Assembly: GCA_947568835.1 (NCBI GenBank)
Contig: OX387602.1
Location: 19,705,021 to 19,769,020 of the forward strand
From: Protonemura montana
Taxonomy: Eukaryota > Arthropoda > Insecta > Plecoptera > Nemouridae
DNA length: 64,000 nucleotides
Direction: 5' to 3'
A program made the translations under genes and the position numbers. The stretch's first letter is position 1. Each line of letters opens with the position of its first letter. Under the pieces are notes generated by a model. That model was not told where the DNA came from, searched no databases, and was given only the letters and a program-made list of their open reading frames with translations. This document shows, one piece after another, positions 1 to 59,782 of the stretch.

Positions 1-505
1 GTGAGTCAAGATCTAGTCTTAAAAGAGTCTTGTTGCTCAATGCACGAAAAGGTGACAGAAATGGCGACGGAAAGACGCGTTGTAAGCTGGTGATGCGACG
101 CGTGCCGTATTTTATGCTGACACTGGATTGCCATAAGTTCCGATAGATTATTAATAGATTGCCAACATTCTACTTTCACGGTATGATATGTTTTCTTGGC
201 TTTGCACATTGACGTATTTGATTTACCTAGATCTACATTAGAAACACATCTGGATCTATAGTCCGTTTTATAATCAGGTGTCCAGCCTCCTTGGACTTGA
301 TATAACTTTGAGTTCGTCAGTGTTATTTCTGTCAAATTTTCTGCCAGACGGGAGTAATTTTCTGATGTTGACGCATGTCAGTTATAATTGTTTTGATTGG
401 AATACAACAGAATGAGCTGAGTGTCTCTCATTTTCTCTTACTCTCAGGGTGCATTCTGTGCGAACCTAGGATATTTCCTTGACCTCGCTCTTGCTTTGTT
501 CGCAG
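1..505 (+). other. Last intron of the receptor tyrosine kinase gene (partial or complete)
   Basis: The window opens with GTGAGT, a perfect splice-donor consensus, and the stretch ends at a pyrimidine-rich acceptor (TTGCTTTGTTCGCAG, 491-505) directly before the kinase exon. It is therefore most simply read as one complete 505-base intron whose 5' exon ended just before the window. A second acceptor-like site lies near 447. No coding signal is seen on either strand. The donor reading is an inference, because the upstream exon is not in view. Confidence 0.6.
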
Positions 506-1262
506 TTACGATGTGATGAACGGCTGCTGGCAGGAAGACCCCAGCACTCGGCCTTCCTTCCACGACCTCACCCTTATCTTTGAACGCATGCTCGAGGACG
601 GCGTGGAGTACCTCGACCTCAACCCCCGAATCGTCCACAACCGCACCTATTTCACCTCACAGATTGAGTCAACACCCCTCTGGACCAATCCGCTCCTCTT
701 CAACAACAACAATACTAGCAGCAGCAGTAGCACTCGGAATGTAGGCAAAGCGGATGCACTGACCACAATCCTCGAAGAGACCTCAGCAGTACAATATTCA
801 ACAATCAGTAGGTCCGAAACTCGTCAGTTGCTGCAGAGTGTCGACTGCTTGAATTCACAAGAAGACTCTACAATCATTCCCGAAACGTTGCAACTCATCC
901 AGAACACGAGCCGAAGAAGCCCGAAGACGAAACAAGCCTGTGCGTCTTCTGAGTCTATTCAGCTTTTACCAAAGACTGTAAAACTAGTGGAAATCCAAGA
1001 TGTTCCTGGCGATGAAGATGGCGGCGATGACAGTGAACCGCACTCTTACCAAAACGACGAGGAGAAAGCGAAGGAGGCGAGCCGAAATGGCGCATACCTG
1101 AGCCCGATTAAGAGCTTAAGAAGGACGCAAAATGTGGAGGGGTACTCGTATGTGGCGATGGCGGATGGACAGGCAGAGGAAGGCCGGTCACAGGATCAGC
1201 TGCCTTCCACTAAGAAAGACCCGCTGTCGAGTCCGACTCCTGCGAAAGTGACGCGTTTTTGA
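506..1262 (+). CDS. Receptor tyrosine kinase, C-terminal coding exon (partial; RET/FGFR-like)
   Basis: The exon starts after the acceptor at 501-505 and reads YDVMNGCWQEDPSTRPSF, the conserved end of a tyrosine-kinase domain (helix with CW, then the invariant R-P of kinase subdomain XI). It continues as a helix and the segment VEYLDLNP, a Tyr-containing C-terminal element of the kind found just after the kinase domain in RET and FGFR receptors. The remaining tail of about 200 residues is polar and low in complexity (runs of Asn and Ser, acidic patches, YSYVAM near the end) and probably carries phosphotyrosine docking sites. The stop is TGA at 1260-1262, with a polyadenylation signal at 1337. 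The ectodomain, transmembrane segment and most of the kinase domain lie before the window. The kinase identity is firm. RET is my preferred class, but FGFR or torso-type receptors are not excluded. Confidence 0.8.
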
Positions 1263-9129: not shown

Positions 9130-12100
9130 TTACCGACACGCGCACGAGTCGACAGTCATGTCGTGGTAGCTTCTGAGAACCACGTTGTTGTTGTCATCAA
9201 GGTAGAGGAGACTCATAGCGCTGAGCTTGTCGGGGACGCAGCATGGATCAGGCACATGGGCCTCGCTCCCGATGGCGTGAACCAAGCTCTGGATGGTCGC
9301 GTGGTTGGTGGGCTTCATCGCCTGGAACAGACCGGGTTTTGTCACAATTATTTCGGTGATCATCTACATTTACTAATCAGTAATCACACATGTCTCGCGT
9401 AACGTTGCGCCGGCCAAACCACCGAATGAATTAACACTTCTCCCAACGGCTCCTTTTGGTTTAAGAATTTTAAGAATTTTGCAAGATGGTTTAGTTTCTC
9501 TGGTGTTTTCTCATAGGTGCTCAAACTAGTAAGCATTGAATGGTAAGGATTGGAAAATGTGCGATCGAATCGGGATACGAACTCGGGACCTTCCGTTCCC
9601 TTATTCCACAGAACGAGAAAGAAATCTTGTGTGTGACCGGCAATCGGCATGTCCCGGGTTCGTATCCATATTCGGTCGCGCATTTCTCCAGCCTCACTCC
9701 TCTTCCAATCTAGATAAGCAATCCAATCCAATTCAATCAAAAGCTTACCAATCTAGGTAAGCAATTAGGAGACACATTTTCTCTCACCCTTTACTTTGAA
9801 TTTCACTTACACAGAGACCTAAGGGTCCCCTATCTCCACACTATGTCTGCGTCAAAAATAACGTCTTTCATTGATGTATGAAGATATGAGAGCATTGAGA
9901 ACCAACGTAGTTCCGTTTTTAAGGTGTTCAACCTTTTTTTATTGGCGAATATGGCACTATACTGCGTAAACTTCGGGTTAGGCATTATACTTACGGCACA
10001 CTTCTCAGTTTTGTTGTGTTTGTCTCCAGTCTACAAATCCAGGCGGCAAAAAGAGAGGGAAGAAAAGCGATTTCAATGGTTTAATAAACTTGTATGTAAG
10101 CAAGCACTGCGCGTGGAAGCAAGGTGGCGTAAGGCTGGACACAAGAAATATAGCAAAAAGTTTGTCTTCAGTTGATTACCTTTGTCAGGGGATAGACACA
10201 CTGCCCTGCGCAATAGTGCGCCTCGAATTTCTGCGGGCTGATGATCCAGTCTGCCCACCCGATGTCGGCAAAGTCAACCACCAGCTTGTTTTTGCGGCAT
10301 GACGATCCGGGGTCTCCTCGAGATATCCCAGCTTTCGCAGAGTTCTCGTGCAACTCGTCGTCGTCCTTTGAACAAACGTTGCAATTGCCAATTACCCAAT
10401 TATGCAGCGGGGTCTACTGAACATTTAAAACATCACACCCTCCGCGGTCTAAGTGACGAATATTGTGTTATTTTCACTCGTTTTATTTTTCACTGGTTAT
10501 CTAGAAATTTTCCGCGCTTGTTTTCTTTGGAACATGGTGACATTTTTATGTCGTTTCCCATCTTGCACATCGGGTGATGACTCTTAACGTCTAGCGACTA
10601 AGCTGCGGTTTCAAGGCTCCTAATTCTGATCATTCCATCTCACTCTCGTGGAAAAAGTGGCATCATTATTTTCACAAAATAACCCGTGGTTAGCCAGAAT
10701 CCTCTAAAACAAAGTGAATGAATCGGTGGTAATGTCTCAGAGAATCTCGCTTAGCCACAGATAACATGGGACAAGCGGCCATCGTGACGTTAGTGGGCTA
10801 GAAAGAATTGTAAAGATAAATAGAGCTTGGCTTGAGAGAAAGCGCACACTAAAAGCTCTTGTTCTTATCATCTCAACCCTAATGGATGTTGAGGGTTGGT
10901 GCCGCGACCGTGCGATGGGAACGCGCGCTAGGCGAGGCGAGGCAGGGGCTACTTAAGTACAGTTTTATTACCTCGCCACCTTGGGTAGCTTTGCTTGGCG
11001 CCACCAAAACAGGGCACTTCGGAAGGTGTGCTCTGACTGCCGTGGGCGTCGTCGTGGGTGCAGCGAGGGAGATTAAACCCTACTAATAACCTCGAGTGGA
11101 CACTTGCACTGAGGCTTTATTGCTCTCATATATAGGTAAGTCAAGCGTTTCTGGATATAATAGTTAAATGTTTATGACTCGGAACGCTTTATGAAAGCAT
11201 GGCGTGCATCGCGAATTTTCCCAGCGCTGGAGGAAAACTATTATGTTCTTTGCAACTTATGCAATTTAAAGTTGCAGGTTTTACGTTCGATGTTACAATT
11301 AGGTCATTGAAATTCTGATCTATGTCTCACCTGGTCCCCTTTTGATTGGCGAGTATCGATGACTTTCTTTCCTCTGTGCTTGTTATCCCGTTTCTTTCCC
11401 CTGCTTCTCTTCCTACCGCCACCACCGCCGCCTCCGCCGCCTCCGCCGCCACTTCCAGTGCCACCACCGCTGGCGCCTTTCCACCGCTTCGTTGACCTCC
11501 CCGGCAAAGGGATCACGTTCTGCCCCCGACGTCCAGACTCTTGTGACGTTCGGGACTTCAGCAGCGTCTGCGGTGAGCTCCTCGGGATCTCCCCGCTCCT
11601 CATGTCAATCGCGTCCGGTAGCTCGTTGTCGGTGATCGATCTGATCACCCTGCCTCCGACCATCAACTCAACGCCATCGTACTTCTTGAGCAGACCCCGT
11701 GTTGCTACGGCGTCGTCTCGCTCCATCTGAGTGGCCGTCGAGCGCACAGACCGCTTGCCGAAACGCACGTTGTTGTCAAACCCGTCATCCGGCGCCCTTC
11801 TCGGCGCCACCACGTCTTCCCCCTTCTGGCGCAAGCGGTAGCGCGTCTTAGGGTGGATGCGACGTCTTCGCTCAGCGAAACCCTTCTTGCTCGAGTCGCC
11901 GTTTGGCAGTTCGTCGAGAATCTTCGCCTTCTTGCCTTTCGCCAGGGCGGAAGGTCGAGGGTTATCGTCGGTGTCTCCAATGGAGTTGTCGCTGCCTTGG
12001 TACTGTCGGGTGACTGGGTTTTTCGTGTAAGGCCTGTGCTTCGATGTGGCAGCCACTTGTTTGAGCTTTTTCTCCGCTTCCTTCGCTTCCAATTTACTTT

Positions 12101-15100
12101 TCCTCTTTTCCACGAAATTCTCGAAGCTGTTGTGGTCCGAGTCAGAATCGACCGCCTCATCGTCCACTTTGTCTTCGCCCTTGAGGTAAAAGTCGTCATC
12201 GTTGGTGGCGTTGAGAGCGCCTTGCGCGGGGTCCACGTCGTGAATCAGCGAGGCTAGTGTATGGGTGTGTCTAAGAGGGTTTCGTGCGCGGGACTCTTCG
12301 CCTAACAGGCTGTTGTCGTCCGAAAAGACGACGAGGAAGGCCGACGTCTCGTTAGTGGTCTTCAGGAAGCGGTCGGGAGCGATAGGCCGGTTGCGCGGCG
12401 CCTCGAACCGGATACCCAACTGCAGCGGCGAGGACGGGGTGCTCAGAAGCAGCTCCCGGAGCACCGAGGTAACGTCCAGGGTGTGCCACCCGCCGCGCGT
12501 GTGCTGTGCCACCGGCAGGTTGGCTAGGAGCACGGTGCGAGATCTGTAAGAATGGGCGGGTCAAGAGTGATTTAGACAGTGCTTTGGGTTCGCTTCGCAC
12601 CCAGCGCGGCAAACACCTACCCGACAAAAATGTGAAAACTTGGTCTCGTCATTCGTCAGAAGATTTCGTTCAGAAAATATCTTTAAATTTAACCCCAACG
12701 TCCTGGTCCTTAAATTCTACCCACTAGCATCCGAGAATGTACAAATAAGAGTCTCCAGGCCGATCCATCCAGCCAACTGAACGCGTCGATCAAAGTGTCC
12801 CACGACTTGATCGATGATTTCCTTCAAGCCTGCTACAACTGCAGCAGATTGGGGTTGAGTGCATTCTGGAGAAGTCCTAAAGACTAAGAGCCGGGAGCCG
12901 GGACGGCGATGCTGACCTGTGATTGAGCACGTGGTAGATGCGGACACGGTAGGGGGGCTCCAGCGTCCGTCCGCGTCGAGGAGCGACCTCTTTGCGCGGC
13001 AGGCGACGTCGATGAAGATGAAGCTGTGCCAAATTCACTTCTTCGGACTGCTCGATACACGTCACATTGAACACGAGCAGCTCGCTGCCGGGGCTCGAGC
13101 CTGCAGGACACAAAAGAATTCGAATACTATTATTATATATTTTATCATAGCGGCGGTATACATAAGAGTTAATTACCACGAGCTACTTGGGCATAAAATA
13201 ACATGATTAATATCCTTGTTGGCCGTACGTCCACTGACTCATCACATTCTTGGTGGTGAATAAGCAATCGACGTCTGCTTCGATGGACCGTCGGGTACAA
13301 CCGCTACAGTTTGGTTAATTAGCGATGTGTATCTAACACATTTCTTGCTTCAGCGACGCTTTCGAGATCGGCAAAAGTCAGCTGCAGCGCCGTGTTCTCT
13401 GGACGAGCGAAAAAGCCGGCTCGTGGAAAAGAAACTCTGTAGATGTAACTTGGTGTAACTTGTTAATTAGACGCTGATTTGCACGATTATTCGTTTACCT
13501 AACTCTTAGCAAAATGTTTTCTAGTGGGAAGGCTAACAAATATACATTAGCAGCTGGCGTGGAGGTCAGAAGTCTAGCACCGGACAATGCCACTCTCAGG
13601 GTACTGATCCCTGTAAACCCGGTATGATCGCTCGTTAAAATGCTTTTCAATTGATTTGGGTACACAGCTACCAGACAAACAGATCACGTTGTGTGCCTCA
13701 AAGGTTTCGAGTTTCAGAGTTAAGTTGATGAATCATTGTAATCATTTTGAGTCCCCCCTAACTGCCCCATTTCCTCTCATCATTTGTAACATAATAGCTG
13801 AGGAAAGCGGTAAATATTAACATTGTCTTATGTGGAAGGGTGGAGTTTTAAAGATGCACCTGTTTAAATCTTTGCTTACAGCTTCGGCTTTCGTAAAACA
13901 TGGTGGTTTAAAATTGAAAGTTTGAACAAAACACACAGAATTGTTCAGATAGCCAGAAGAAAGCCTATTATTTAACCAGGCCTAATATTGACCGAACGAT
14001 CCTGGTTTGAAACAGCCTATTTCGTGTGTATCGCGGCAGGGTCGCCCATTAGCACGTCTTCAGTCTTGTTTAGAGCATTGTTGGAGAAAAGTTTCGAAGC
14101 CTGCCTTCTTCCGACTATGGCGGTGTTCTAATGCCATTCGGTTGTGTCCGAAATTTGCAAATCTCCACCAGTTACTTTAGTTGTAAAATATAATTGTAAG
14201 TACCTCTATGTCTAATTAGTTGTAAACGATGAACCCTGCGCTAGGTTGGCCAAGACATACTCAATGAAGTTGACTCCATTGAAAATGTCAACAAAGCATC
14301 GACAATAAAATCATCATACCAATTTAGAGGTTATGAAAACGTGAAGCCATGGTTGTACATGGTAAAATATGGTTGTAATGTTCCTTACGTTTGTTTTACA
14401 TGTATTACACATAATGTGGATCACTTAGAAATTAACATAAAATAATGTAAGAGTTGAATAAAAATTGTGCATTCTATTTTCATGCTGGTGCAGAGTAGAA
14501 TAGCTGGCGATAAAAACGGCGTACGTAGGGAAGTGCTAAACGCAACAATTTCCCACAGAATACTAAGTTCAGCACTCGAAAACGCCGACCTCGATTAAAA
14601 TTAATAAAGCAAACGTAACAATGCAACGCACTTGATTGCGTTACGTAGGTACAGAGATATAGAGTGAGAGAGAAAGAGAGCGAGTGGTAGAGAGGAGGAG
14701 AGAGAGCAAGAGATGGTCGGCGAAAAGGTGGCTTCTCCATACCGTGGATCGGGCGACAGGGTGGTCCTGAGAGCAATCAGCATCTCTCATCTGAGAGCCA
14801 GCTCCTTAGGGAGGCTGCGGCTTGAAGGGAGAGGGGGGCCCCACTAGAATTGAATGGAAAGAATGCACGTGAACCCATAGTCTTAATATCTGAGTAGGTA
14901 TAATCATAAGCCCGCATGCTTGAGGTGGATGTGCAGCATCGATTTAACTAATCTCAAAGTGGGATAATCTGAATTAGAATGCATAAGTGGTAAACTTGAA
15001 AGAAAACAGCTTATGAAGATATTTTTCTGGCTTGATAAGCATTGTTTTAGCTTTAAGTTCTAATTTTTTTATATTTTCTCAATGGTGATCCAAGCTGATG

Positions 15101-18100
15101 TAACAATCCAACGTCCTCTCGAAGAGTTATTTGAAGAATGGAGGAATTAAAGAACGTCAAGATTTCTTTGGCATCGAATCATGGATAGAACACAGAAATT
15201 TAAGTAATTATTAAAACTAAAAATAAGATGTGATGACCATGTACTTCATAAATCTCGTAGATACTCGTGGATCAGTGTGAACATTGTATTTTGAATAAGA
15301 AATCAATTTCTAAACCTACACTGAGCCCATTCACAAGACGCGAAGGGATATATTATCAAACTAGGATCACGTTAAATAATGAAATCTTCGAGTGCCTATT
15401 GTTCTATGTGTATTTGGCCGCCACACAGGTGGTATGGTGGTACCTATCGGTTTGATTGAGCTGTTAACATCATAACATGTGGATGTGGATGTTGATTGTT
15501 GCGCCGATGGAATTACATAGAATGGAGATGTCGACATGAAAAACACACTGAAGACGCCCCTAAATAATCCGACGACCGGCAATTACGTGCTCTTCGGCCC
15601 AGAAATCGTGACCGAGTGGAATGCACGAGACTATCTAGAGACCAGCATGGAATCCGCCGAGAGGTTACCAATCATAGTGAAGAAGAGATCGCTCCCCGGA
15701 GACGATCTAGAGGCTGTAAACGGAGCCTGTAAACATCGGCTCATTTTTTGCGACTCAAATATGCATGCAGATTTTGTGCTAGTGATCAATTTGCGTTTCT
15801 ATTATCGTCGTTAATACAATTACAGCCCATAAATAGTTCGTGGTAGCTATGGATTTGGATGTTGGTATCATGAAAATCCCACGAGTTTGATTTGTTGCAA
15901 ATTTCCTCTTAAAAAATAAATTATCCTATCGCTTGCGCTGATCGCTACTTTACCGATAATATGCCAATTTGGCTCTGAAAATAATGTGTATGACAATAAA
16001 GAAGGCCATGCAATCTTTTGTTTGATACTCGTACGCTATACTACAAATTTGTTAAAAAAATACGACGTTTTACGGGAAAAAAATCAACGCAAAATGTTTC
16101 GGAATGCCTTTCAAAGTGGATTCCTAACTATTTTGTTCGGAGGAGGCAGTAATCCTCTGTCTATATGGGACAAGAAGGTAAGATTAATTACAGGCGACTC
16201 TCGCGAAGTAGGACAATACTTTGGCATTCAATTCCACTTTGCTACTTTCCCATCAGATTGAGAATGGTCACCTGAAACGTACGACAGACGAAGAAGTAAA
16301 GGCGATTGTCGTGGAGATCATAGGAAACAACGTCGCCACAGCGTATATCTTCTGTCCCTCGAACCCAAAGATATCTTTGGGCATCAAGCTACCTTTCCTC
16401 ATCATGATCATCAAGAACTTGAAGAGATACTTCAGCTTCGAAGTACAGGTGAACAAAACACCTGTGTGCCAGTATTTGACAGGCGACAAAATAAATATCT
16501 TCCTTTAGTTTGACAAATATTCTGCTTCTTGGAACAATCTGTGTTGACGCTCGCTGTCAAATTTACAGCCTAGTCAACCTAAACAACAAAACCATTGAAG
16601 CAGCTCGCTAAACCTATCGTCGACAACAGCTGATTGTGATTAAACTAGCGGTTGTCCATCAGTTAGAAGTGAAAATAGAAAAGTTATTCCAGTAAAAGCA
16701 AAGCCGTTGGCGAGGCAGCTGCCAAGGTCATTGGCAAGGCGTTGACGTGCCAAACGTCACAGGCCACGCGGCTGTCAAAAGCATGGCGAACATTTGCAGA
16801 TTCTCGACGACAAATACCAGAAGCGTCGGTTCCGAGTGAGCAATTTCCAGTCGGCGAGCAAGGTGCGACCATTCTGCTGCACCATCCCGCTCAGTTTGAA
16901 TGAGGGATGGAACCAGGTGCAGTTCAATCTAGCGGACATCACTCGACGAGCCTACGGGACTAACTACATAGAGGCAGTGCGCATGCAGGTAGGCCCGTTT
17001 TGGAAATATGATATCACTTTCATTTTGATGGTCTTGGATGGTGTGCGCTTCACTGAAGATTACTTTTTCCAGTAAAAGGGAGGGATGGGATGAAAGGTTG
17101 TAGAGAAACTCTGGCATAGGGACCTAACACTTTGGTCATTTTAAAATTGAGTCGTGTAAGTTTTTTGCTACTAGGAAATCGAAACACGCGGTGATCGTTC
17201 CGTGGATGCAAGGGATATTAACTTGGATTATTTTTTGACCAGAATTTGTAAAGCTCAATTTTTTAGTGCTTAAAAACAGATTTGGAAAATTGGGACCCCG
17301 AAGTTTCTGGTGTTTCTTGCCCAGATATAGAGGGACATTTAAGATTTCTTAGTGATTTTAGGTGCAGGTGATTTTTTGGATTCACCATCTCCATATAAAA
17401 TTGTGTATCTAGTGGCAGTCAAAACAAATCTAGGCGTTTGATGTAAAATTTGGATTGTTGGGGTCTTTAAGAAATGCATTGGCAAAGACACCTATTATAG
17501 CGACGCTTTGGAAGTCTCTTAAAAAAAATTTTGATCTTGATCGTGCACCAATTTCTCTCTAGGTGCATGCCAACTGCCGTGTGCGCCGTATCTACTTCGC
17601 CGACCGTCTATATACGGACGACGAGCTCCCTGCAGACTTCAAACTGTTCATGCCCGCCGCCGAGAGGAAGCCCACGCACAGAAACTAGGCCCATTGCCTG
17701 GGCGCCTCCATCATCTACACGTGTTGTCTTCAATATCATGTTTTACACGCAAATAACATGTTTTATAAACTCTATTCATCCACTACTCCATTACTTGCTC
17801 AAACAATCTGTGCTCAAACCATATTTTGTAAGATTGAAATAAATATTGATAATGGAAAATTAGCAACATGGAATACTTTTCATTCTATAGTCACCAACCA
17901 TATACGCTATACGTATAATTTCGCTTTTAGTAAATTAAGCTTCCATTGGAAGTCAAGAAAATACGGTCCCAGTGTGAATCGAGTTCACATTTTGTAGGTA
18001 CCGGTTCCACGCGGACCTCTCAAAATTTTCCACATCAATTCAATTTCCAAACAAGTTTGCGTGATCACTGCAAAAAGGCATGTGTTGCGAGCGAACCCGA

Positions 18101-21100
18101 CGCCGCATTATAAAGTTGCACACTCATATCCCTGGCCGGCCGCGCCGTGCCGTGTGATAATAAGCTTCTAACGAAGCGATGGCTGCTTTGATTTATGAAC
18201 TCTGTGGCATCGATGAAAGCACACAGAACGCCCACTCCCGAGCGGTGGGGCCACCGGCCACCGACCAGAGCAGTCACCGAGCAGGTGGTGATGCCAGCTA
18301 GGGGTCGATCTAATGTACACATACCAATGATTTAATAAGTCGAAATATGCCTCCATATATCATTCGAATGATTTTATGAATTATTATAGTTTTTGATTTA
18401 GTGGTTCCAGTGATTGGCTACCATATTTTCAAGTGCCGTGCGTCTTGGCCAGAAGTAGTCAGTTGATTGCGCTTTTAAGATGTCTACAAGAGACAAAGCA
18501 AGAGCAAAGGGGAGAAGGGGGGTCAAAGTTCTTGGGGTGCACGTCCAAGTTGCCCCATGGCTAAAGTAGTTCGAATAACGCAAACTATCCAATATCTTGG
18601 TGCCCTGTTCATGGATTTTATGTTGTGCTAATTTAGCGGTAGGTTTGCAGCGAGTACAATTCTCTGAACCTTATATGATAGCGATTTTGGAAATGAGCGC
18701 AATGCGCTCGAAACGATTTTCTTTGCTTAAAACCATATCGGTCGTTTCCAAAAAAAACAATCATTGTAAGAGGCAAACTTGTACCACTGACTTGTACCCA
18801 ACCTTTTTTTTTCACAACATTTTTAATTGGGTTTTCTTTAACATTCTCGTGTGTTGCGTTTTCCAATATTAAATAAAGCAACACGTAAATGACATCATTA
18901 CCATCAAATGATTACACCAATCAATATTGTCGAGATAAGGCGCTCGTGCGCCACACGTTTATCAGCCACCAGCTGTCAATCAGTTTAAGGGCGGGATTAA
19001 GTGGAGCCCTTAATTCGGTGCTAAGCTGACTCGTATGAGTGACGTGTCGGTGGTGGTGTGTGGGAGGGGAGGGGGGGGGGGGGGGTCTGCCACCACGTCA
19101 ACTTAGTCAACTTAGCCCAATTAACAAGGATGAACGAGTGATAAGCCTGCTTTCAAATGAAAACCAAATTAATGAACACGATCAAGAATGAAAAATATTC
19201 GCTCGCAAAGTTTAGCCTTGTTAACCACCAATTTAAGTAGATGGGCTGATTTTAAAATTGAACAATTGTTTCCGACTCTTCGACTCAATTACCCTGTACT
19301 TTATTTAGCTATCCCTTCATTGTTAGTGAAGTTAAAATCTAATGTTTTAAACAGTAATCAGGGTGGAGTTTTGCCGAAGCGATGAATTCAAACCTCCAGT
19401 TGGTTAAATCGTGCAAACGTGGTCTATCTATTGCGTAGTCAAAAGTTTGGTTCCTATGAAAATTCTCATATTAAATAAAACCGGTACCGGACCCAGTTTT
19501 CAGCGCTCTTTGCTGGATTTAGTTGGAAACGCATCATATGATCACTATTGAGATTATCTTTATAGTGCAACAGGCTGTTAATTCTCCCATAACCATGTGT
19601 TCGCCTTGTAGGGTTATCACAACCCCACGACTTAATGATATCTTCCTCACATGACTCCAAGGGAAACTTTGCCCCGAGGGTTCCGTTACTTTTTCAATCA
19701 GCAGGAGTAAGCAGTTCGCACGCTTCAAGTCGCAGCGATAAAATCCTGTGCCCACCTGTGCCCACCTGTGCGGCACTGCACCGCTCTCAGACAAAGGAAA
19801 TTAAGGAGACGGCCAAGACGACGGGAATTCGTGATTGCGCACTTGATCTGTGCGCACTCACAACTTCATCACGACGAAAAGAAAGAAAAAAACGCACGGT
19901 TAATTGTAAAGTCGTGTTTAAATTTCCTCCACAATAAAACAACGAAAGTAGTGTCAACGCATATACATATAGGTTTCCAATCGGAATCCACGGAAAAAAT
20001 ATACATACATACCTTCATAAAACAAGTTAATCAAACAATGTGGGTCCAGTGTTTTTTAAATTCTTCTTCCCGTTATCCGATATCATCTCCTACCATTGTG
20101 ATTTAGATCTAACCTTTTGTCAAACTCGTCGTCGTCCTAGACTTAGACGCTGGCCCTAATCTTCAATATCCAACGACGTAATCTCATCCCTTTGCCCCTT
20201 AGTTCAGCAGATTACGACGCCCGTCGCACCTGTGTTCCCCGGCGTCGCGACGTCTTAAACGGCGTCATTTGTCAAACTAAACACGTGCACGTTTTGTTCA
20301 AACTTAAAATCACTGGAGGGGCGGCGACGACGAGACTTTTTTTTACACAGCTGTCGGTTTTTAGAAGTGTGGCTACTAGATAGGTAGTTCGTCCCCATGT
20401 TGCAAAATTAATTCAAACCAATTCGGGAGTTCTAACTTTAATACATTACAAGCTAGTTCAATAGTGGCTGTGATGAGAACGATTTTTCTTTTTCTGTCTA
20501 GCTCGGAAAAGGAACCTCTCGTGCGGATTCATGGCGTATCTGTTGGACGTAAAGCGAATTACAGTGACCGCCAATGAAAGCATTGCCATCAAAAACAAAC
20601 CCATATCTTAGTTGTCGTAGCAATTACATGGTTCCGAAATGTTACGTTCAGTGTACGGCGCGAATTCGCCAACTGTGTTAATTATTAACATTTGGCAATG
20701 ACATTAATATTGTACTGCACGTGGAACACACGAGCTAGCCTAGCTGAGGGTAAATATCACAAAACGGCTGTTTGAATTGTACGGATACAAACGGTGGAGA
20801 TTGTACAAATTACAAACTACAAACCCTTGTTCTCCGTTTCTGTATATGTTCACATACCGTGCTAGACCAACACACATGGCCAAGTAGGAGTTTCTCGTTC
20901 GACAAATTCAACGTTCACACGTCCTGTGCTCAACGTTTGCGCTTTCAGTTTGTCGAATGGACATTTTATACTTCACTCTCAGCCGGTTTTCCATCATTTT
21001 CGATCACTTTCGCATGTACATTCTCAATTATTGGTGTCAATCGTGATAAAGTACCAGACTGAAAATCTACCATATTCCAATGCAATTGAGTTCACCCTCC

Positions 21101-24100
21101 GTAAAATCAGGATTCGCTGTGCCATCCATCCTTCCTATTAGCCACTGTCCCCGGCACGCTGTGATGATAACAGGTGCCATTATTCTCAAGGGATTAAAGG
21201 CATGAAGCAAATAGCATTGTCTACTCGTTCATCAGGCGATCGCTCCGGTGTTAATCCCAACAGTCTGGGGACGAAAGAGGCATCAACCTCAGTACACATG
21301 AATATTGAAATTATAGGAAGGGTTCATGGTTGTAATAAGGGAGGTATAGAGGAGCAGATATCTTTGTACAGGTGTTTTAGTTTTCAGAGAGCGGAAATAG
21401 GATATAAAACAATGGATGCAGGCAATCACGGGTTGGCAAACATCCCTTATAGAATGGGACGCGGGCCCTGTAACCAGTACCCGCCGTTGACAGTTTCGTG
21501 GCTTTATGGCAGCTGGTTGCAAGAATGGCAGAGGAGGAAAGCCATAACCAATCCGTGATACCTATGTCCAAGCTGGCTGGAACGAGATCTAAAGCTATCG
21601 ATTGTGTAAGAAATAAGCGTCGAGAAAAACAGGCTTGTATCGTAATTCGTTACATCTAAGCAGCGCCATTCTGTCAAGTAGGTACTTTACCAACCAGAAA
21701 ATCCGACAAAAAATAAATCCGAGTTTTCCAATCGCTTCTAGCCGATTCTGTGCTACTCAAATATAAACTGCCATCTCCACACTTTTGTCCGCGATTCTTG
21801 CAGGCTGCGACGAGGCTACCACTTTTTGGCAGATCGCTGTTTGTTATGAGGGTGATAATCCTGTCCATTCCACGGGTGACGGCATTCAACCCCTCGACCC
21901 TCCACGCCAGCTTCGACACGCATTCTAATTGACGTGTCAAATGCTTGAATCTTGCGCCCGCATCGTGCGTGTCATGCGTTCTGTCCAATTGGGACAATCA
22001 ATCTACGGTGAAGGTAGAGGATTTATTGTTTTTTGATCAACAACGGAGGCAAGTCCGTAGACAAGACAAAAGAAAATATATAAAAATCAAACACCACGAT
22101 ATTCATTTGTTTCGGGAAATTCTTTAAGTAGGCCACGTGTAAATAATAGCACCTCCCACGAGGCCATGTCTTTAGCTGGGACGCTTAAATACATAACCAT
22201 CACCAATTGAGAGTTTCTTGAAATGTAATAATTCTAAAGCGAAAAACATTTACAGGTTTCTCCGAGTGAGAAGTGCCGTCAATTGACCGAGACAAAATGT
22301 CAGGTGAAAAACAGCGAAGCCATAGTCATAACGCAGCGCATTTTTAATCAAACGAAAGCAAGCGTGTGCAGGTTACTCAAAACTCTGAGATGAAGAAAAC
22401 TTTTAGAAGCAGAAAAAGTCTGCTATATACCTAGTCATTGTTATTGAATCAATGGTTTGTTATCCTTTGAAAATGTTATGTTATTGGAAAGTGAAAACTG
22501 AAGAGAGTTATTGGTATAAAATAAACTAAATAAAGAAAGCTGGGTTCTCTGTTCATTTCCTAACACCAACTCCACACGGCATGCCATGGGCACATAGAAA
22601 CCAGAGAGCAGGAAGACGACAGCGGTCACTTTATTTAGAATCGTTATATTTCTTGCCAAAATTGGACCATTTTCTCGCTGGAGACGAGCACCGCCCCCAA
22701 TTGGGTCCAGCTGTAATTCAGGGCAGCATGTCAGAGTCTCAGGTAGTGTCATTATATCGGTCTAACAGGTGGACATAATTACCTTCTCCTCTAGTTCTGA
22801 CAACCTCCCTGACGGATCCTTTGTTCGACTTCATTACATTTCAAGTGCCACTTCACAGTTTACCAAAGCTCGAGTAGACGATAGGCAATAGGTACAGAGA
22901 AGCATGCTGGCTGTCTGCCACCGCTGACGCATTGTTGCAACTCCAAATGATTTGCAATGCAATTATGTGATAAGTCATACTCACACACTAAATGTACTTA
23001 ACCATACAGACGCTGACTGTCACGGTTTTAGCGGCACAGTACCAAACTATATTCAAGAACAGACAATAATCTGATCACAAACTCCGCTGCTTTCACCCAC
23101 AAATTTTACGTTAATTTTCTTGTGTTCTTTCATACAACAGTATCTGAATCGCATTGGAAGCGTCATCGCTTTCCACATCTGCATTTTACTGGTTGCCATT
23201 CGCGCAATTCGTAAGCCGGGTATTTCACGCTGCTCCAAGAAGGGCCATATTTTTGTTCACACCAGACAGGGCGATCTGCGAGGGAGGTGTTTGCTCGTCC
23301 TAGTGCGGGGTGCGGATGCTTTCCTCCCGTTGAGACGAAGCAAGGGCCGCCTGTTCTGCGCTCGAGTGTTTCCCGAGTGACCATAACCCACAGATGGCTG
23401 CCCGTCCAGCCACGCACATAAAACCCAGCAGCGTTTTCCGATTCGTACGCGATCAACGGGGACCACACGGACACGACAGCGCGGCACGGCGGAAACAAAG
23501 TGTCTCCGTCAGAGAAATAAACTCTTTTTACGGCAAACCAAAGGGACTAATAACACACTCTGCAAAGTGGGCGATATGTTTGCTGGGTCGATATGATATC
23601 TCTTACATGAAGTAGTTTTAGGCGATTTGAAATGTACGTTGGTAGGGGTGAAAGAGATCAGGTGTGGGAGGTGCACGTAACTTTGCACCCCTCGTCGAGT
23701 AAAATTAAACCACCGTTCTATATTCGACGAGACTAGAGGCCTGAGTACCTCAACGAATCAGAAAATGTTGTTTCGCTCGTTTAAAATTGCAAGTCGTCGA
23801 CGAGATTTGTACAGATGATGGCACCAAGTCAAAAATAACGAGAAAATTATGTCTTCTTTGACGGCCCATAGAAAATGACTTCCTAAGTGATAAAAGATTA
23901 CACCCTTGAAATCAGTTCCTGGTAAAAATTACCCCTCATCGCATTCCTATCGCTATGTGGCCCATGAGCGATTGTCTCTTGTTATTGTGTCGGGGCGGCG
24001 CGGTGCGGCGGCCCCGAGCCGCGAGGGTAGCAAGTCCAAAGGAACATCGAGGACTAAAAGCGCCTGGCGCCGAACACACCTGATCGAGTGCACCACCCTG

Positions 24101-26437
24101 GCCGCCACCTAATTGACGAGACACCGGCCACGACTGTTAGGAGACAGAGTGGGGAGGTACGAGGTACCGCGAGAGTTTGCGCGAGAGAGTGCAACAGCAC
24201 CGGAAGTGGGTCTTCTGACACCAGCCGCGTTGACACAATATTCCTAGAAGACAATTGTTTATAGGTGCTCCGCTGTATAATTAGGGTGAATTCGTATCCT
24301 CTTCAAAGCACGGTCGGTGGAGTGATTGCAGCGTTCTTTGTCACATGCTATTTAGAGGAGATTTATTTACGCTGGACTATCAGAAGAGTGGTCTCTCTGA
24401 TGAGATGTGCTCGAAGCAGCATCGAATAGCGTAAAACATGCCCATTCATCAAATGCACATAGATAATAATTTCCACTGACTTGTTTTGTCTCTGGTCGTT
24501 AGTATACGTGTAGTGTTACAGGTTACATCCACAGCGCTAGGGTTGGGGTAATGTGGGATTGCTAATGAAAGAGTGCGAAACTGCAAACGGGCTTGCCATG
24601 CATTTCAGCCGGGTTTACAGCGGGGGCAGTGTTTACGCGTGCTGGGACAGGGAGAGTTCCCCAGTAATGGTGCTACGAAAAGAGCGTTCCCTTCCCCATT
24701 TCCCTGGCTAATGCCGAGGGTTACTATTGCACATTGTCGCAAGAGCTTGTCAGGCTTTACTGATGCTATACTGCTATGGTTTTGGTCGTTGGGTGGACAA
24801 CGTTTCATGGCGCCAGTATCGCGACATTCCTTTTAGGGGGTAAGGAAAGTGACACAAGAGTTGTTACCTTCGGTTATTTATATACCTTTAGTTAATTGTC
24901 AGTCTCTGGTCACTTAAGGTTCGATGTAAGAAATGAAGGCGAGGATAATGTGGTTAAATGAATGTTCGAAAATCGAGTTGGGAAGGGTTGTCAACAGCCG
25001 TTTTCAGAAGTTATATTTCCAATAATAAATGCCTACAAGTAAGTTAAAAATAAAAATAAATAAAAAAAATTCGATGAAATATTTGAGGGGAAAAAATGTG
25101 ATTATTTTTAGCCATTTGCGTTTTACCTGCAAGAAAACTTAAATGCATACGAAAACTTGTTCAAAACGTTGGTCACCTTGGCTAACAAAAGAATAGGAAT
25201 CGGAACAAAGTGATCATTACCACATGTCATTACTTTAAGCGGCTGGCTCTTGCTACGCGAGTTTATTTCTGGAATCAGACGGGTATAATTTGTGATCAAT
25301 TGGGCAAACCCTGTGAATGAGGATGAGTATTTGCGCGATCATTATTCATTGGCATCATTTTATATTCACTTGTCAACTCTGTGTGTTTCCTTATGAGTTT
25401 AATGCCAACTATATCAGTGTGTTAGTTCTCATAGCGCGTTCTGCGCATTTAAGAAGCGATTTCCTAAAATTTCGTGAGCAACCATCCGAATGTTCTGAAA
25501 ATAGATTTACGTCAACGCTGGTGTCACGCTTAATTGTTCGCCAAAAAAACGTCGTGTTCATTAAAACTTCTATACTGTAATGAACGCCAAAAACCTTTGC
25601 ATACATATTTGAATAGTAAATTGTAGTTACCTACGTTCCATTAGTAAAAAAAATGTTTTAAGCCATCATGCGTTGCAGACAAGACAAAGAAAATAGGTGT
25701 TCTCCTCTAGGTCAAAGATAATTTTTAAGAAAACAAAACCAATGTCGCCGACTGTGGTATACAGAAGTTGGGGCTCTGCAACGGACCTAAAGAGTGATCA
25801 TACTACCTGTTCTAAAATACGATTTCACCCAGAAGTAAAAGAAAATACTCACGCAACGTAATAATACCTACGCATTTTACAGTTAAACATTTTTAAATTG
25901 AAAAGAATTGCAAATGCACATGAAAACATAATGTAGTCCCACCGGCAAATAATAAAGCAACACCCAAGCCCCAATCATTAAAACGTGTGTTGTAAGCTAA
26001 GACTACCGTGTGCTACCCCCAAGAAGGGTGCCACGAAACGGCTTCCCACCGGCTCCAAGTCCAAACCTTCCAAATGAATAGCATCTCTCGCGGCGTGTCC
26101 CAAAACAACTATAATTACGTAGAGGTAAAAACACATATAATGCCTTTCATCGACAATTACCTTTGAGCGTCGGCAGAATACTGCGAACCGTGTTCCCACT
26201 CATCCTCCTGGCACCACCAGCCATTGCGTACTTTTGGTAAAGTTCCATCATGTGTTTTGGGGGCAGCGACGGCGCCACGGCTCCCGCCAGCCCCGCTGCA
26301 CCAACCGGGGGCTGTAACTTGAGGATATGACGGAAGACATTCTGCACTGCGATCTCTTGGTCACTGTCGAACGCAGCTTTGGCAGCGCAAATCGTGGCCA
26401 GCGACAGGATTACGCACAATCTGAGCGTCGGAAACAT
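9130..26437 (-). CDS. Bmp3: BMP3/GDF10-type TGF-beta family ligand (five exons, 683 aa)
   Basis: Coding exons on the minus strand: 26437-26161, 13100-12917, 12543-11331, 10365-10180 and 9321-9130. All junctions are GT-AG and keep frame (2052 nt). Exon 1 encodes a signal peptide ([21 protein letters not shown]) and a propeptide start with MELYQKY and GNTVRS, typical of TGF-beta prodomains. Exons 2-3 give LLVFNVT and [12 protein letters not shown]. The C-terminal 103 residues hold seven cysteines in cystine-knot spacing, with [29 protein letters not shown] and a CACR end. The DFADIGW/WIISP, NHATIQS and SCACR features resemble vertebrate BMP3 and GDF10 more than dpp, gbb or activins. The processing site may be RSVR near residues 418-421. 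A basic, acidic and Gly-rich linker precedes the knot. Secreted and probably dimeric. The first intron (13 kb) contains another gene. The ligand class is strong; BMP3 orthology is likely but not proven. Confidence 0.9.
9538..9705. repeat. Inverted pair of truncated tRNA-derived SINE copies
   Basis: The left arm (about 9548-9593) carries a minus-strand copy of a tRNA-like B box and SINE body. The right arm (about 9640-9695) carries the same body on the plus strand, with GGGTTCGTATCC and the TTTCTCCAGCCTCACTCC tail. The arms are diverged but clearly match each other and the pair at 37481-37781. The tRNA-proximal ends of both copies are missing at the centre. The pair lies in the last intron of the BMP3-type gene. 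Confidence 0.65.
11416..11460 (-). repeat. In-frame GGN (poly-glycine) trinucleotide tract in the BMP3-type gene
   Basis: CCN-type triplets on the plus strand encode about 12 consecutive glycines (about residues 519-530), followed by a strongly basic segment (RKRSRGKKR). This is coding microsatellite DNA and likely to vary in length between individuals. Confidence 0.75.
16094..17688 (+). CDS. Cfap20: CFAP20/Bug22-like cilia and flagella protein (four exons, 196 aa)
   Basis: Exons 16094-16177, 16257-16448, 16800-16988 and 17563-17688 are all phase 0 and total 591 nt. The start ATG (CGCAAAATG) gives [15 protein letters not shown], followed by [80 protein letters not shown] and [13 protein letters not shown]. 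These are the landmarks of the DUF667/CFAP20 family, and the length is close to the usual 193 or so. CFAP20 is an axonemal doublet-microtubule inner-junction protein needed for ciliary and sperm motility, with reported nuclear roles. By eye this copy has many more substitutions than I expect for this very conserved protein (for example [25 protein letters not shown]), which suggests a relaxed or male-specialised paralogue. It is nested antisense in intron 1 of the BMP3-type gene. A polyA signal lies at 17838. Confidence 0.92.
17838..17843 (+). terminator. Polyadenylation signal AATAAA of the CFAP20-like gene
   Basis: AATAAA lies 150 bases after the TAG stop of the nested gene. It is the first good hexamer downstream and fits a short 3' UTR. 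Confidence 0.6.
19062..19085 (+). repeat. G-rich homopurine tract
   Basis: GGGAGGGGA is followed by 15 consecutive G, just after a GGTGGTGGTGTG stretch. It could form a G-quadruplex, or simply be a slippage-prone homopolymer. It lies in intron 1 of the BMP3-type gene. Confidence 0.7.
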
Positions 26438-28641: not shown

Positions 28642-29614
28642 ATGTTTTCCCTCAAGAGAGGATTAGTTACATTGTTGAGGTGAATATGCATACTTGTTGC
28701 AAGTTGCAACGCTTACTGGTTGCCGGTTGCTGGTAACTTGGTTTTCTTGGATTAAATATTGACATTTTATAACATTACAGAAATGGGGAGTCTACTGTCA
28801 GCATGAGCAGTGTTCACCTAAAACACACGCTCCCTCCTCTCCCTTATGATGTGAAAGCATTGGAACCAGTCATTTGCGGTGACATTATGAGCCTGCACCA
28901 TTCAAAACATCATGCCACTTACGTTGCCAACCTCAACGCTGCTGAGGAAAAGCTGAAGGAAGCACAAGCTAAAAGTAGGTACTTACCTACCGAATAGGTG
29001 CAGATTTCATTCACTGATCTTGTATCCAATACCTTCTTTATTGTTAAGAGGCGTGACTAAAAAGTATTTTCCTTTGTAGATGATGTCAGTGCTATAATTG
29101 CACTAGCACCGGCACTGCGGTTCAATGGTGGCGGCCACATAAATCACTCGATATTTTGGCAAAACCTTTCTCCTTGCGGTGGAAATCCTTCTTGTAAGTT
29201 AAGTTCAGCCGCCAAGTATAAATTGGTAATGCAGTTTTATCTCATTGAATTATTTGCTGTTACTTACACGGAATAATTTATTTTCTAGCTGAACTTGAAG
29301 CAGCTATTAAACGGGACTTTGGCTCATTAGACAACCTCAAGTCGCAGCTGAGTGCAGCTTCAGTTGGAGTGCAAGGCTCTGGTTGGGGCTGGCTTGGATT
29401 TAACAAGCAGTCAAAGAAGCTGCAGCTGGCAGCATGTCCCAACCAAGATCCATTAGAAGCCACTACTGGATTGCTACCCTTATTCGGTATTGACGTTTGG
29501 GAGCATGCTTATTACCTGCAGTACAAAAATGTACGAGCCGACTACGTCAAAGCCATATTTGAGGTTGCAAACTGGGGAGATATTTCGGAACGGTTTGCTA
29601 AGGCGCAATGTTAA
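28642..29614 (+). CDS. Sod2: Superoxide dismutase [Mn], mitochondrial (four exons, 223 aa)
   Basis: Exons 28642-28679, 28781-28974, 29080-29193 and 29289-29614 (672 nt) join in frame. The first exon encodes [12 protein letters not shown], a basic hydrophobic presequence for mitochondrial import. Mature sequence landmarks are [23 protein letters not shown] (first metal histidine and an active-site histidine), [11 protein letters not shown] (second metal histidine), [13 protein letters not shown] and [13 protein letters not shown] (metal Asp and His). All four Mn ligands expected for the Fe/Mn SOD family are present. The enzyme converts matrix superoxide to hydrogen peroxide. The length matches the usual 220 or so residues. 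The ATG at 28803 could start a cytosolic form, but the upstream exon gives a better family match. Confidence 0.96.
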
Positions 29615-37243: not shown

Positions 37244-40200
37244 TTAGCTACCCAAGGCTCGTGCTGAGCTGTGCTCCATGATCTCCTGCTGGCGGTCCTG
37301 CTCTACTGAAGAGTCCAAGTCGAGAATGAGCTGGTCTATGTTTGGCTTTGGTCCGTCACGAGGCATCAACAGTTTGGGTACCAGCTCGTATTGAGCTTTT
37401 GAGCAATGGTTTGTCAATGTTTGCTTGGGCAAGTCGTAAGTTACTCCTGGAAAGAAAGATAAGGTAAATATCCAAATGAAAGAGGAGCTGAACTGGAAAA
37501 ATGTGCGACCGAACCGGGATACGAACCCGGGACCTCCCAATTGCCGGTCCGATGCTCTACCAACTGAGCTATCAGGGCACACATATTCCGGTTTTTCGGG
37601 GTTGGTTAAGGGATCCCCTAAAGGGGGAAGAGACCGAGGCGACTCATAATGACAAGTACTTAGCGAAAACTGGAATATGTGTGCCCGGATAGCTCAGTTG
37701 AAAGAGCACCCGATCGACAATTGGGTGGTCCCAGGTTCGTATCCTGGTTTGGTTGCACATTTTTCCAGTCTAGCTCCCCTTCCATGCAACGCTTGCTAGT
37801 TTCAGCTCCTTAGTAGTATCACCAGAAAAACCAAAAACCCTGCAAATATCCATAAATATCCATAAATATCCAAATATCTATCTATGTTTAACATTGGTAA
37901 AATCTGATTTAAATTGCTAACGCTTGCAATGCTTGCAACACCTGCGACAGGTGGAGATTGGGTTTCGATTCCCCATTTGGGCATCAATTTTTGAGAGATT
38001 ATTAGTGTTCCTAATAATAAAATGTTTAACATTGTTTAAGGTAGCAGTTCTAGGCTAGATATCAAAGATGTCTTCAAATTTTGAATTGATCCAACAAATT
38101 AAGTAAAAAGCATACAAAAAATTACAAAGTTAAAGTAAAAAAAAAAAAAAAAAAAAAAAAACATTTTGCAGGTTATTTTGATTTGTAGTCAAATTGAGTC
38201 ATCATCCAATAAGAAAAAATATTTACCTTGCTTCTGGTAAAAAAGAACATAACCATTGTTATAATGTTCTTCTTGAGGCTTCTGTTTGGTGACATCTGCG
38301 TCGTTGAAGTAATGCCACTCCCCAGTTGACAAATGCTTCGTGTACGCCGTGTAATGCCCCGCAGTCGAGTCTCCAAAGTGGCAAACACTCGAATATAAGT
38401 TGTATGTATGAGTTGGCCCATGGTGCTGGCCTGACGATGAGTTAAACTTTAGACCAGTCAACGGAAAAGTGATTTTATTGTCGAGTTTCACGCTTACGCC
38501 ATCGTGGAAAATGAACCTGCAAAAGTAAACTTTTCTTATTAAATCCAATTGTTTCTCATTTCTTAACTCATTCAAAACTTTTTCTTTTTTCAAATAATAT
38601 AGAAATGTAACTTTTTTCTTGTTTTTATACCTCAGTCAAGCATCGGATTTGCGGTAAAACGGACTTATATGTACACAATGATCAAATAAATAAAATATAA
38701 AAAATAAATAAATAAAGAAAGTAAATAAACATATCATTGATTCTAACTATTTGACAACAATGATTGTAGTGCACCACGTCATGCCAATTTTTTGCTCTGG
38801 TAAGCTGCACTTCTCATTTCTTTCCTTCTTCACTTCTATCAATATCTAGCCTATTGTAACTTTATTTGCATTATTTGATAATAGTTAATTGATAATTTGT
38901 TAATTTGATCATTGGTAATATTGTCAATATTTTATAATAGTTAGAAGAACAGATTATCAAAACTAGCAATACAATATGACAAGAGAATTGAGCCAACCTT
39001 TTCAGATAAACAATGAGGAAGTTAGGATAACGCCACACGGAGAGCGTTTTCGTGGCACACTGATTCTTGTTGCACACCGGGCAGTACCACGGGTTGTTCT
39101 CGTCCAATTGCTCGCTGAAAATTTGCCCAAAAATATATTATCTCATCTTATACTATCAACGATACTATATATTATACAGACTCTGGATTAAATACATGCA
39201 ACAAAATATAGAAACAGTGCCGCCATTCGAAACCTAAACTGAAAGAATTATTTCACAATTTGACGCCGCAATCACAATTTGATGGAAGCAACGTGCCATC
39301 TATCAATTTTTATGGTGGTCAGTAGAGATTATAATACGAAAACAATGCGACAATAAGCCGACAAGCTTAGAAGAGCAATAAGTTACTTATGTTTTAGATT
39401 GAGATCAGTCTTTGTTAGTAAAGACAGACTACCACAGAGTAATTGAATGGGGTCAGTGAAGGAGAAATCGTTTACAGGCAAACCAGTACAAAAATCAGCC
39501 TGTCATTAGGAAGAAAGAAGTTACTTTTGATTGCATGCCAATTCAGGAAATGGTCAGGTGAACAGCTCCTAGCCTTAACTACTAAGTGATTGTTTAAAAC
39601 TTAACAATTGTCAAATAAGTTGTCGAGCTATGTCATGCCGCTTGCTTTAGTTATCAATGGGTTTGGACAGCGCCACCGACAACTCATTCAACATGCTTAC
39701 ACAAATCGATCCCACGTTTATTCTGAGCTATTACCTTTTGCTGAATGCTTGCAAACAGTCATAGAGAGAGAGTGGCTCGCTACTACGCTGGTCAGCCATG
39801 CTCGGATGGTCTACAGTCCGCACAGTATCTGCCACTTCCTCATAGAGGCGGACCGCAAGAGTGTCTCCTTTGTGCAGCCTGAGCTCTCCCTGGTGTGAGA
39901 TCGGGCAGCCTCGACAGTGCACAGTGTACATGCAACGAGAGCACCGATAACCCTGTTGCAAAAGAACATCAAAGTTATTATGTTTTTAAGCCTCATGCCT
40001 CTATCCTGGTACTCTTTTCTGAATTCTCGCATAGCATTCAATGCCCGGTTTGGAAGACTGTTTTGTTGGAAAGTTAATATTGCTTCTTCTTCAAGTTCTC
40101 TCTATTTTATCACTATAAATCAAACGCCAAGTTATGATAATTAGCCACACGATAATTCAAGAGATATTTGGACATGGAAAACTATACCTGTCCATCAACT

Positions 40201-59729: not shown

Positions 59730-59782
<53 letters not shown>

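What the first reader, a model, noticed from the sequence alone, without database searches (positions are those of the whole stretch)
9130..26437. BMP3/GDF10-type ligand in an apparent arthropod genome
The cystine-knot domain carries [20 protein letters not shown] and a CACR end, a combination I know from vertebrate BMP3 and GDF10 rather than from dpp, gbb, maverick, myoglianin or activin-type ligands. The standard Drosophila ligand set has no BMP3. If the host is an insect, this is a retained ancestral ligand lost in flies, and its receptor use (BMP3 antagonises activin/BMP signalling in vertebrates) would be of interest.
Basis: partly seen in the sequence, partly recalled or inferred. Interest (0 to 1): 0.75.

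Follow-up and report, generated by a model that had tools for sequence, protein, structure and literature searches.

The report
BMP3 signalling gene in an invertebrate
This stretch holds an intact five-exon gene for a secreted growth factor of the BMP3 class, a class absent from flies but already reported from centipedes and a cricket, so it is a sound find but not a surprising one.

Summary
A five-exon minus-strand gene runs from 26437 to 9130 (683 codons, four GT-AG introns, consistent phases). It encodes a TGF-beta precursor with a propeptide and a seven-cysteine domain. The last 103 residues are BMP3/GDF10 class. Human BMP3 is the best solved-structure match by about 20 bits. The tree groups the domain with human BMP3 and GDF10 at 100/100, and the six other placements tested are rejected (AU p 0.002 or less). 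This holds without GDF10. The window protein branches outside the BMP3+GDF10 pair, so the host is very probably not a vertebrate. Nothing here shows that it is an arthropod: the host genome search did not complete. Arthropod BMP3 is not new. It is reported from the centipede Strigamia (2014) and the cricket Gryllus (2021), and a 2012 transcriptome table lists it for a centipede and a harvestman. In Gryllus, single knock-downs of candidates including BMP3 gave no patterning defect. One point is worth testing: where human BMP3 has Lys30, recalled as an antagonism switch, this protein has Gln. A new member of a known kind, modest interest.

The parts
26161..26437 (-). exon 1: start codon, hydrophobic N-terminus (signal-peptide-like by eye), start of the precursor; ends in phase 1
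13101..26160 (-). intron 1, 13060 bp, GT...AG
12917..13100 (-). exon 2: first part of the TGFb_propeptide match
11331..12543 (-). exon 3: rest of the propeptide match, then a long charged and glycine-rich linker with the basic sites
10180..10365 (-). exon 4: first part of the cystine-knot domain ([13 protein letters not shown]); an alternative acceptor would start it at 10413
9130..9321 (-). exon 5: NHATIQS ... CCVP ... SCACR and stop codon
10231..10233 (-). codon for Gln603, aligned with residue 30 (Lys) of human BMP3 chain 2qcq_A
   Evidence: counted on the alignment; WIISP placed at 10234-10248

Best explanation
The gene is a BMP3/GDF10-class ligand of an invertebrate animal, from before the split of vertebrate BMP3 and GDF10. 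Shown: gene structure, propeptide plus seven-cysteine domain, and class by tree. Inferred from established knowledge of the family: it is secreted as a dimeric precursor, cleaved in the basic stretch late in exon 3, and the mature dimer binds a type II activin receptor (ACVR2B in vertebrates, Punt in arthropods). It then holds that receptor in poorly signalling complexes and so dampens Dpp/BMP and activin signals. I put the class at about 0.97 and the antagonist mode of action at about 0.55.
For: Intact open frame over five exons with GT-AG introns and GC3 of 0.65-0.78, against intron GC of 0.42-0.49. Pfam TGF_beta E 2.6e-34 and TGFb_propeptide E 5.1e-07. Human BMP3 (2qcq) 154.5 bits against 134.9 for the next PDB sequence. 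Tree of 21 ligands: window + BMP3 + GDF10 100/100; forced placement with BMP2/4/dpp, BMP6/7/gbb/scw, ADMP, BMP9/10, GDF5 or Nodal rejected, AU p 0.00012 to 0.00197. The window pairs with BMP3 at 100/100 when GDF10 is left out. 60 of 103 residues identical to BMP3 with no gap; each of the 18 rows outside BMP3/GDF10 needs at least one gap. Antagonism of BMP and activin, with ACVR2B binding, is the reported vertebrate mode (passages of PMC3579780, and PMC12800155).
Against: The only R-X-[K/R]-R site is at residue 379, far upstream of the domain; nearer to it there are only R-X-X-R at 418 and 452 and dibasic sites, the last at 538, so the cleavage point is unclear. The propeptide does not favour BMP3: it aligns to recalled human BMP3 (score 79) and BMP2 (score 76) about equally. 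Lys30 of human BMP3 is Gln here. No expression or binding data. In Gryllus, single knock-downs of components including BMP3 gave no patterning defect.
Confidence: 0.8

Rival explanations
1. The ligand belongs to another BMP class (BMP2/4, BMP5-8, ADMP, BMP9/10, GDF5 or Nodal) and only looks like BMP3.
For: ADMP and BMP6 come fairly close by identity, 54 of 103 residues each, and ADMP shares two residues exclusively with the window protein.
Against: All six forced placements rejected at AU p 0.002 or less; BMP3 clade 100/100 with and without GDF10. Placement with the activin/TGF-beta rows or GDF1 was not forced, but the free tree keeps them apart.
Confidence: 0.02
2. It is a BMP3-class ligand but acts as an ordinary agonist, not an antagonist, in this animal.
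For: The residue aligned with human Lys30 is Gln; from memory, changing Lys30 in human BMP3 raises ActRIIB affinity and turns it into a signalling ligand (Allendorph et al. 2007, recalled, not read here). In a brachiopod bmp3 is expressed on the dorsal side together with bmp2/4, where BMP signalling is read out (passages).
Against: Vertebrate BMP3 is an antagonist; an annelid study calls its ventral bmp3 a BMP antagonist (passages); one residue is thin evidence.
Confidence: 0.3
3. The gene is an unexpressed or decaying copy.
For: No transcription data; low-complexity linker in exon 3; a second acceptor possible for exon 4.
Against: 683 codons open, all seven domain cysteines present, canonical splice sites, coding-like GC3 in each exon.
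Confidence: 0.03
4. The host is an invertebrate other than an arthropod (for example a mollusc, annelid or other worm).
For: BMP3 is reported from spiralians; no tool could name the host; over its C-terminal exon the SOD2 neighbour is 75% identical to recalled worm, 73% to human and 67% to fly SOD2.
Against: Over the N-terminal SOD2 part fly SOD2 scores best, 129 bits against 114 (human) and 115 (worm). The dense gene spacing and mixed CpG levels fit many invertebrates, arthropods included.
Confidence: 0.3

Closest known systems
Vertebrate BMP3 and GDF10 (BMP3b); structure 2QCQ
   Same: Seven-cysteine domain aligned without a gap, 60 of 103 (BMP3) and 59 of 103 (recalled GDF10) identical; [24 protein letters not shown] end
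   Different: Branches before the BMP3/GDF10 split; Gln for Lys30; five coding exons and a long charged, Gly-rich linker
BMP3 of the centipede Strigamia maritima (PMC4244043) and the cricket Gryllus bimaculatus (PMC8051952)
   Same: BMP3-class ligand retained in an arthropod while absent from Drosophila (passages read)
BMP3 entries for the harvestman Metasiro americanus and the centipede Alipes grandidieri (table in PMC3538665, 2012)
   Same: Transcripts named BMP3, 117 and 480 residues long (table passage)
   Different: Named in a section headed Local blast; no sequences available here
Spiralian bmp3 (a brachiopod, Platynereis and Capitella reports)
   Same: Protostome BMP3 (passages read)
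   Different: Sequences not available here; expression side differs between brachiopod (dorsal) and annelid (ventral)
Drosophila dpp, gbb, scw (recalled sequences)
   Same: Same cystine-knot superfamily, 37-47% identity
   Different: Different class; grouping with them rejected

Membership tests
BMP3/GDF10 class of TGF-beta ligands | Cystine-knot domain with seven cysteines in TGF-beta spacing | tested here: met
   Cys 581, 610, 614, 647, 648, 680, 682; PF00019 E 2.6e-34
BMP3/GDF10 class of TGF-beta ligands | Groups with BMP3 and GDF10 in a ligand tree against other classes | tested here: met
   100/100 in 21 rows, 100/100 with BMP3 alone in 15 rows without GDF10; most rows recalled
BMP3/GDF10 class of TGF-beta ligands | Class-specific residues and loop length | tested here: met
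   Five columns shared by window, BMP3 and GDF10 and by none of 13 other rows; no gap to BMP3 or GDF10, at least one gap to each of 18 other rows
BMP3/GDF10 class of TGF-beta ligands | TGF-beta propeptide upstream | tested here: met
   PF00688 E 5.1e-07, residues 100-203; not specific for BMP3
BMP3/GDF10 class of TGF-beta ligands | Proprotein cleavage site just before the mature domain | tested here: inconclusive
   Near the domain only dibasic sites, KR at 506, 532 and 538; the sole R-X-[K/R]-R is at 379
BMP3/GDF10 class of TGF-beta ligands | Antagonism through the type II receptor ACVR2B/Punt | not testable with these tools
   Needs binding and reporter assays; Lys30 replaced by Gln
Arthropod gene | Host is an arthropod | tested here: inconclusive
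   Own-assembly search asked 12 times, never answered; SOD2 comparison ambiguous
BMP2/4, BMP5-8, ADMP, BMP9/10, GDF5, Nodal classes | Groups with that class | tested here: not met
   AU p 0.00012 to 0.00197 for the six forced groupings

The most novel reading that the evidence does not exclude
Protostome BMP3 may lack the vertebrate antagonist specialisation. The window protein has Gln where human BMP3 has Lys30, so the ancestral BMP3 could have been a signalling ligand and antagonism could have come later, in the vertebrate line. Under this reading the gene would be an agonist or a heterodimer partner kept in some arthropods and lost in flies.
Probability: 0.15. Interest if true: 0.55.

Novelty: new member of a known kind. 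Interest (0 to 1): 0.27.

Why it matters
BMP3 was once described as found only in deuterostomes (passages of PMC3579780). Each clear protostome copy helps date its origin to the bilaterian ancestor and shows where it was lost. If the host is an experimental arthropod, the gene gives a place to ask what BMP3 does outside vertebrates; the only arthropod functional result I saw is the negative knock-down remark for Gryllus. The retention pattern itself is already in print, so this is a useful addition and not a surprise.

Tried and rejected
Prodomain as evidence for BMP3: I expected the NTVRS motif to be BMP3-specific, but recalled BMP2 carries it too and aligns almost as well, so I dropped that argument.

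Naming the host: the own-assembly search did not complete. The SINE-like repeat gave one 21-base match in a Rickettsiales metagenome contig with no similarity beyond those 21 bases, taken as chance; there was no match in viral contigs. A BMP3 protein scan of viral contigs gave three pattern matches, none confirmed by tblastn. SOD2 against recalled fly, human and worm sequences was ambiguous. The receptor kinase next door could not be assigned to a family. NCBIfam on six window stretches gave only general matches below the curated cut-offs for four of them and none for two. Rfam at its gathering scores gave one tRNA match and ARAGORN one tRNA; a looser Rfam search added a second tRNA match above gathering and four matches below it, taken as chance.

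Papers: eight searches were answered. Four listings were capped: 25 of 889 papers, 20 of 171, 20 of 9,977 and 10 of 17. One search (BMP3 and arthropods) listed 15 of 16. The arthropod BMP3 reports found are the cricket, the Strigamia paper and the 2012 transcriptome table. One further listed paper that I opened means a fungal kinase by Bmp3; several others in that listing were not opened. Most subscription papers are not held, so absence from this library means little. Kokabu 2012 is not held. The Lys30 report was sought and not found; it rests on memory.

Full report
Observation. The minus strand holds five exons at 26437-26161, 13100-12917, 12543-11331, 10365-10180 and 9321-9130. They join with intron phases 1, 2, 0 and 0 into an open frame of 683 codons ending in a stop. 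The introns are 13060, 373, 965 and 858 bp and run GT...AG. Exon GC3 is 0.65-0.78, while intron GC is 0.42-0.49. The acceptor of exon 4 is the doubtful site: 10413 also keeps the frame and would add 16 residues.

Domain content. Pfam finds TGF_beta at residues 580-682 (E 2.6e-34) and TGFb_propeptide at 100-203 (E 5.1e-07). The mature domain has seven cysteines at 581, 610, 614, 647, 648, 680 and 682, and the precursor has three N-glycosylation motifs. The N-terminus is hydrophobic and looks like a signal peptide (by eye). The only R-X-[K/R]-R site is at residue 379. Nearer the domain there are R-X-X-R at 418 and 452 and dibasic sites, the last at 538, so the cleavage point is not settled.

Class. 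Against solved structures, human BMP3 (2qcq) is first with 154.5 bits, then a BMP2/BMP6 chimera with 134.9; 65 distinct sequences pass 0.001. In a tree of 21 ligands the window domain groups with human BMP3 and GDF10 at 100/100. Forcing it next to BMP2/4/dpp, BMP6/7/gbb/scw, ADMP, BMP9/10, GDF5 or Nodal is rejected with AU p of 0.00043, 0.00012, 0.00015, 0.00044, 0.0020 and 0.0016. Groupings with the activin/TGF-beta rows or GDF1 were not forced. In a 16-row set with scw, Nodal, GDF1, INHBB and TGFB1 left out, five alignment columns are shared by the window, BMP3 and GDF10 and by none of the other 13 rows. Four control groupings of the window with other pairs gave none. Single-row controls gave 0 to 2: ADMP 2; BMP3, GDF10, GDF5 and INHBA 1 each; the other ten 0. 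Without GDF10 the window still pairs with BMP3 at 100/100. The BMP3 row comes, and the BMP6 row was held by eye.

What the propeptide does not say. It aligns to recalled human BMP3 (score 79) and recalled BMP2 (score 76) about equally. In four comparisons (two ligands, two lengths of the window propeptide, 300 shuffles each) the best shuffled score was 58 to 62. It supports a BMP-type ligand but not the BMP3 class.

Host. Human BMP3 and GDF10 group together at 100/99 with the window protein outside them. It therefore left before the two split, and the host is very probably not a vertebrate. Nothing here shows an arthropod. The own-assembly search did not answer in 12 tries. Neighbours are ordinary animal genes by Pfam: receptor kinase tail (below Pfam's cut-off), SOD2, an amidase, a ubiquitin hydrolase, mitochondrial-type L27, P5C reductase and a TMCC-like protein. 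Of ten stretches scanned, two gave no match. SOD2 gave mixed signals. CpG observed/expected is 1.01 over BMP3 intron 1 and 1.16 over exon 3, and 0.52-0.91 over five other stretches. This could mean gene-body methylation of some neighbours, as in many invertebrates, which is my inference.

Known work. The Strigamia genome paper reports BMP3, noting that it had been suggested to be only in deuterostomes (passages of PMC4244043). [quoted passage not shown] A 2012 table already lists BMP3 for the harvestman Metasiro (117 residues) and the centipede Alipes (480 residues) (table passage of PMC3538665). Passages of a brachiopod paper (PMC13121700) and two annelid papers (PMC13275895; PMC7522025) treat bmp3 as an ordinary protostome gene. 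The Nasonia survey speaks of eight ligands and does not use the word BMP3 in its main text (PMC4218986). So retention in some arthropods and absence from flies is an established pattern.

Mechanism. In vertebrates BMP3 dampens BMP and activin signals; the precise mechanism is called unclear, with high-affinity binding to ACVR2B shown (passages of PMC3579780; PMC12800155). By class, I expect a secreted dimer that binds Punt or its counterpart. Whether it antagonises is open. Position 30 of the human chain is Lys and the window has Gln603 (counted on the alignment); from memory, this residue tunes ActRIIB affinity in human BMP3. I rate antagonism at about 0.55 and agonism at about 0.3.

Verdict. 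The BMP3 call is correct, the arthropod host is unproven, and the finding is a new member of a known kind.

Noticed in passing
window 1-64000: CpG observed/expected is near or above 1 over the BMP3 gene (intron 1 1.01, exon 3 1.16) and lower over five other stretches (0.52 to 0.91), a mosaic that could mean gene-body methylation in the host.
   Followed up: partly
window 483-1259 (+): C-terminal exon of a receptor tyrosine kinase, convergent with the BMP3 gene; the family could not be told. It looked RET-like by eye, from memory only; human RET and GDF10 lie in the same chromosome region (recalled), so a shared ancient linkage could be tested.
   Followed up: partly
window 37476-37785, 9635-9707: tRNA-like SINE: two inverted copies 70 bp apart, both matched by the Rfam tRNA model and one called tRNA-Val by ARAGORN, and a third diverged copy in BMP3 intron 4.
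   Followed up: partly
window 59762-60397: Two tandem copies of a 317 bp unit, 99-100% identical, beside a TA microsatellite: a recent duplication or an assembly artefact.
   Followed up: no
window 49151-49295: Inverted repeat (67 bp arms, 88% complementary, 11 bp gap), possibly a MITE; it overlaps a below-threshold mir-787 hit.
   Followed up: no
window 28797-29608 (+): Mn superoxide dismutase gene in several exons; its C-terminal exon is nearer to recalled worm and human SOD2 than to fly SOD2, its N-terminal part the reverse by score.
   Followed up: partly
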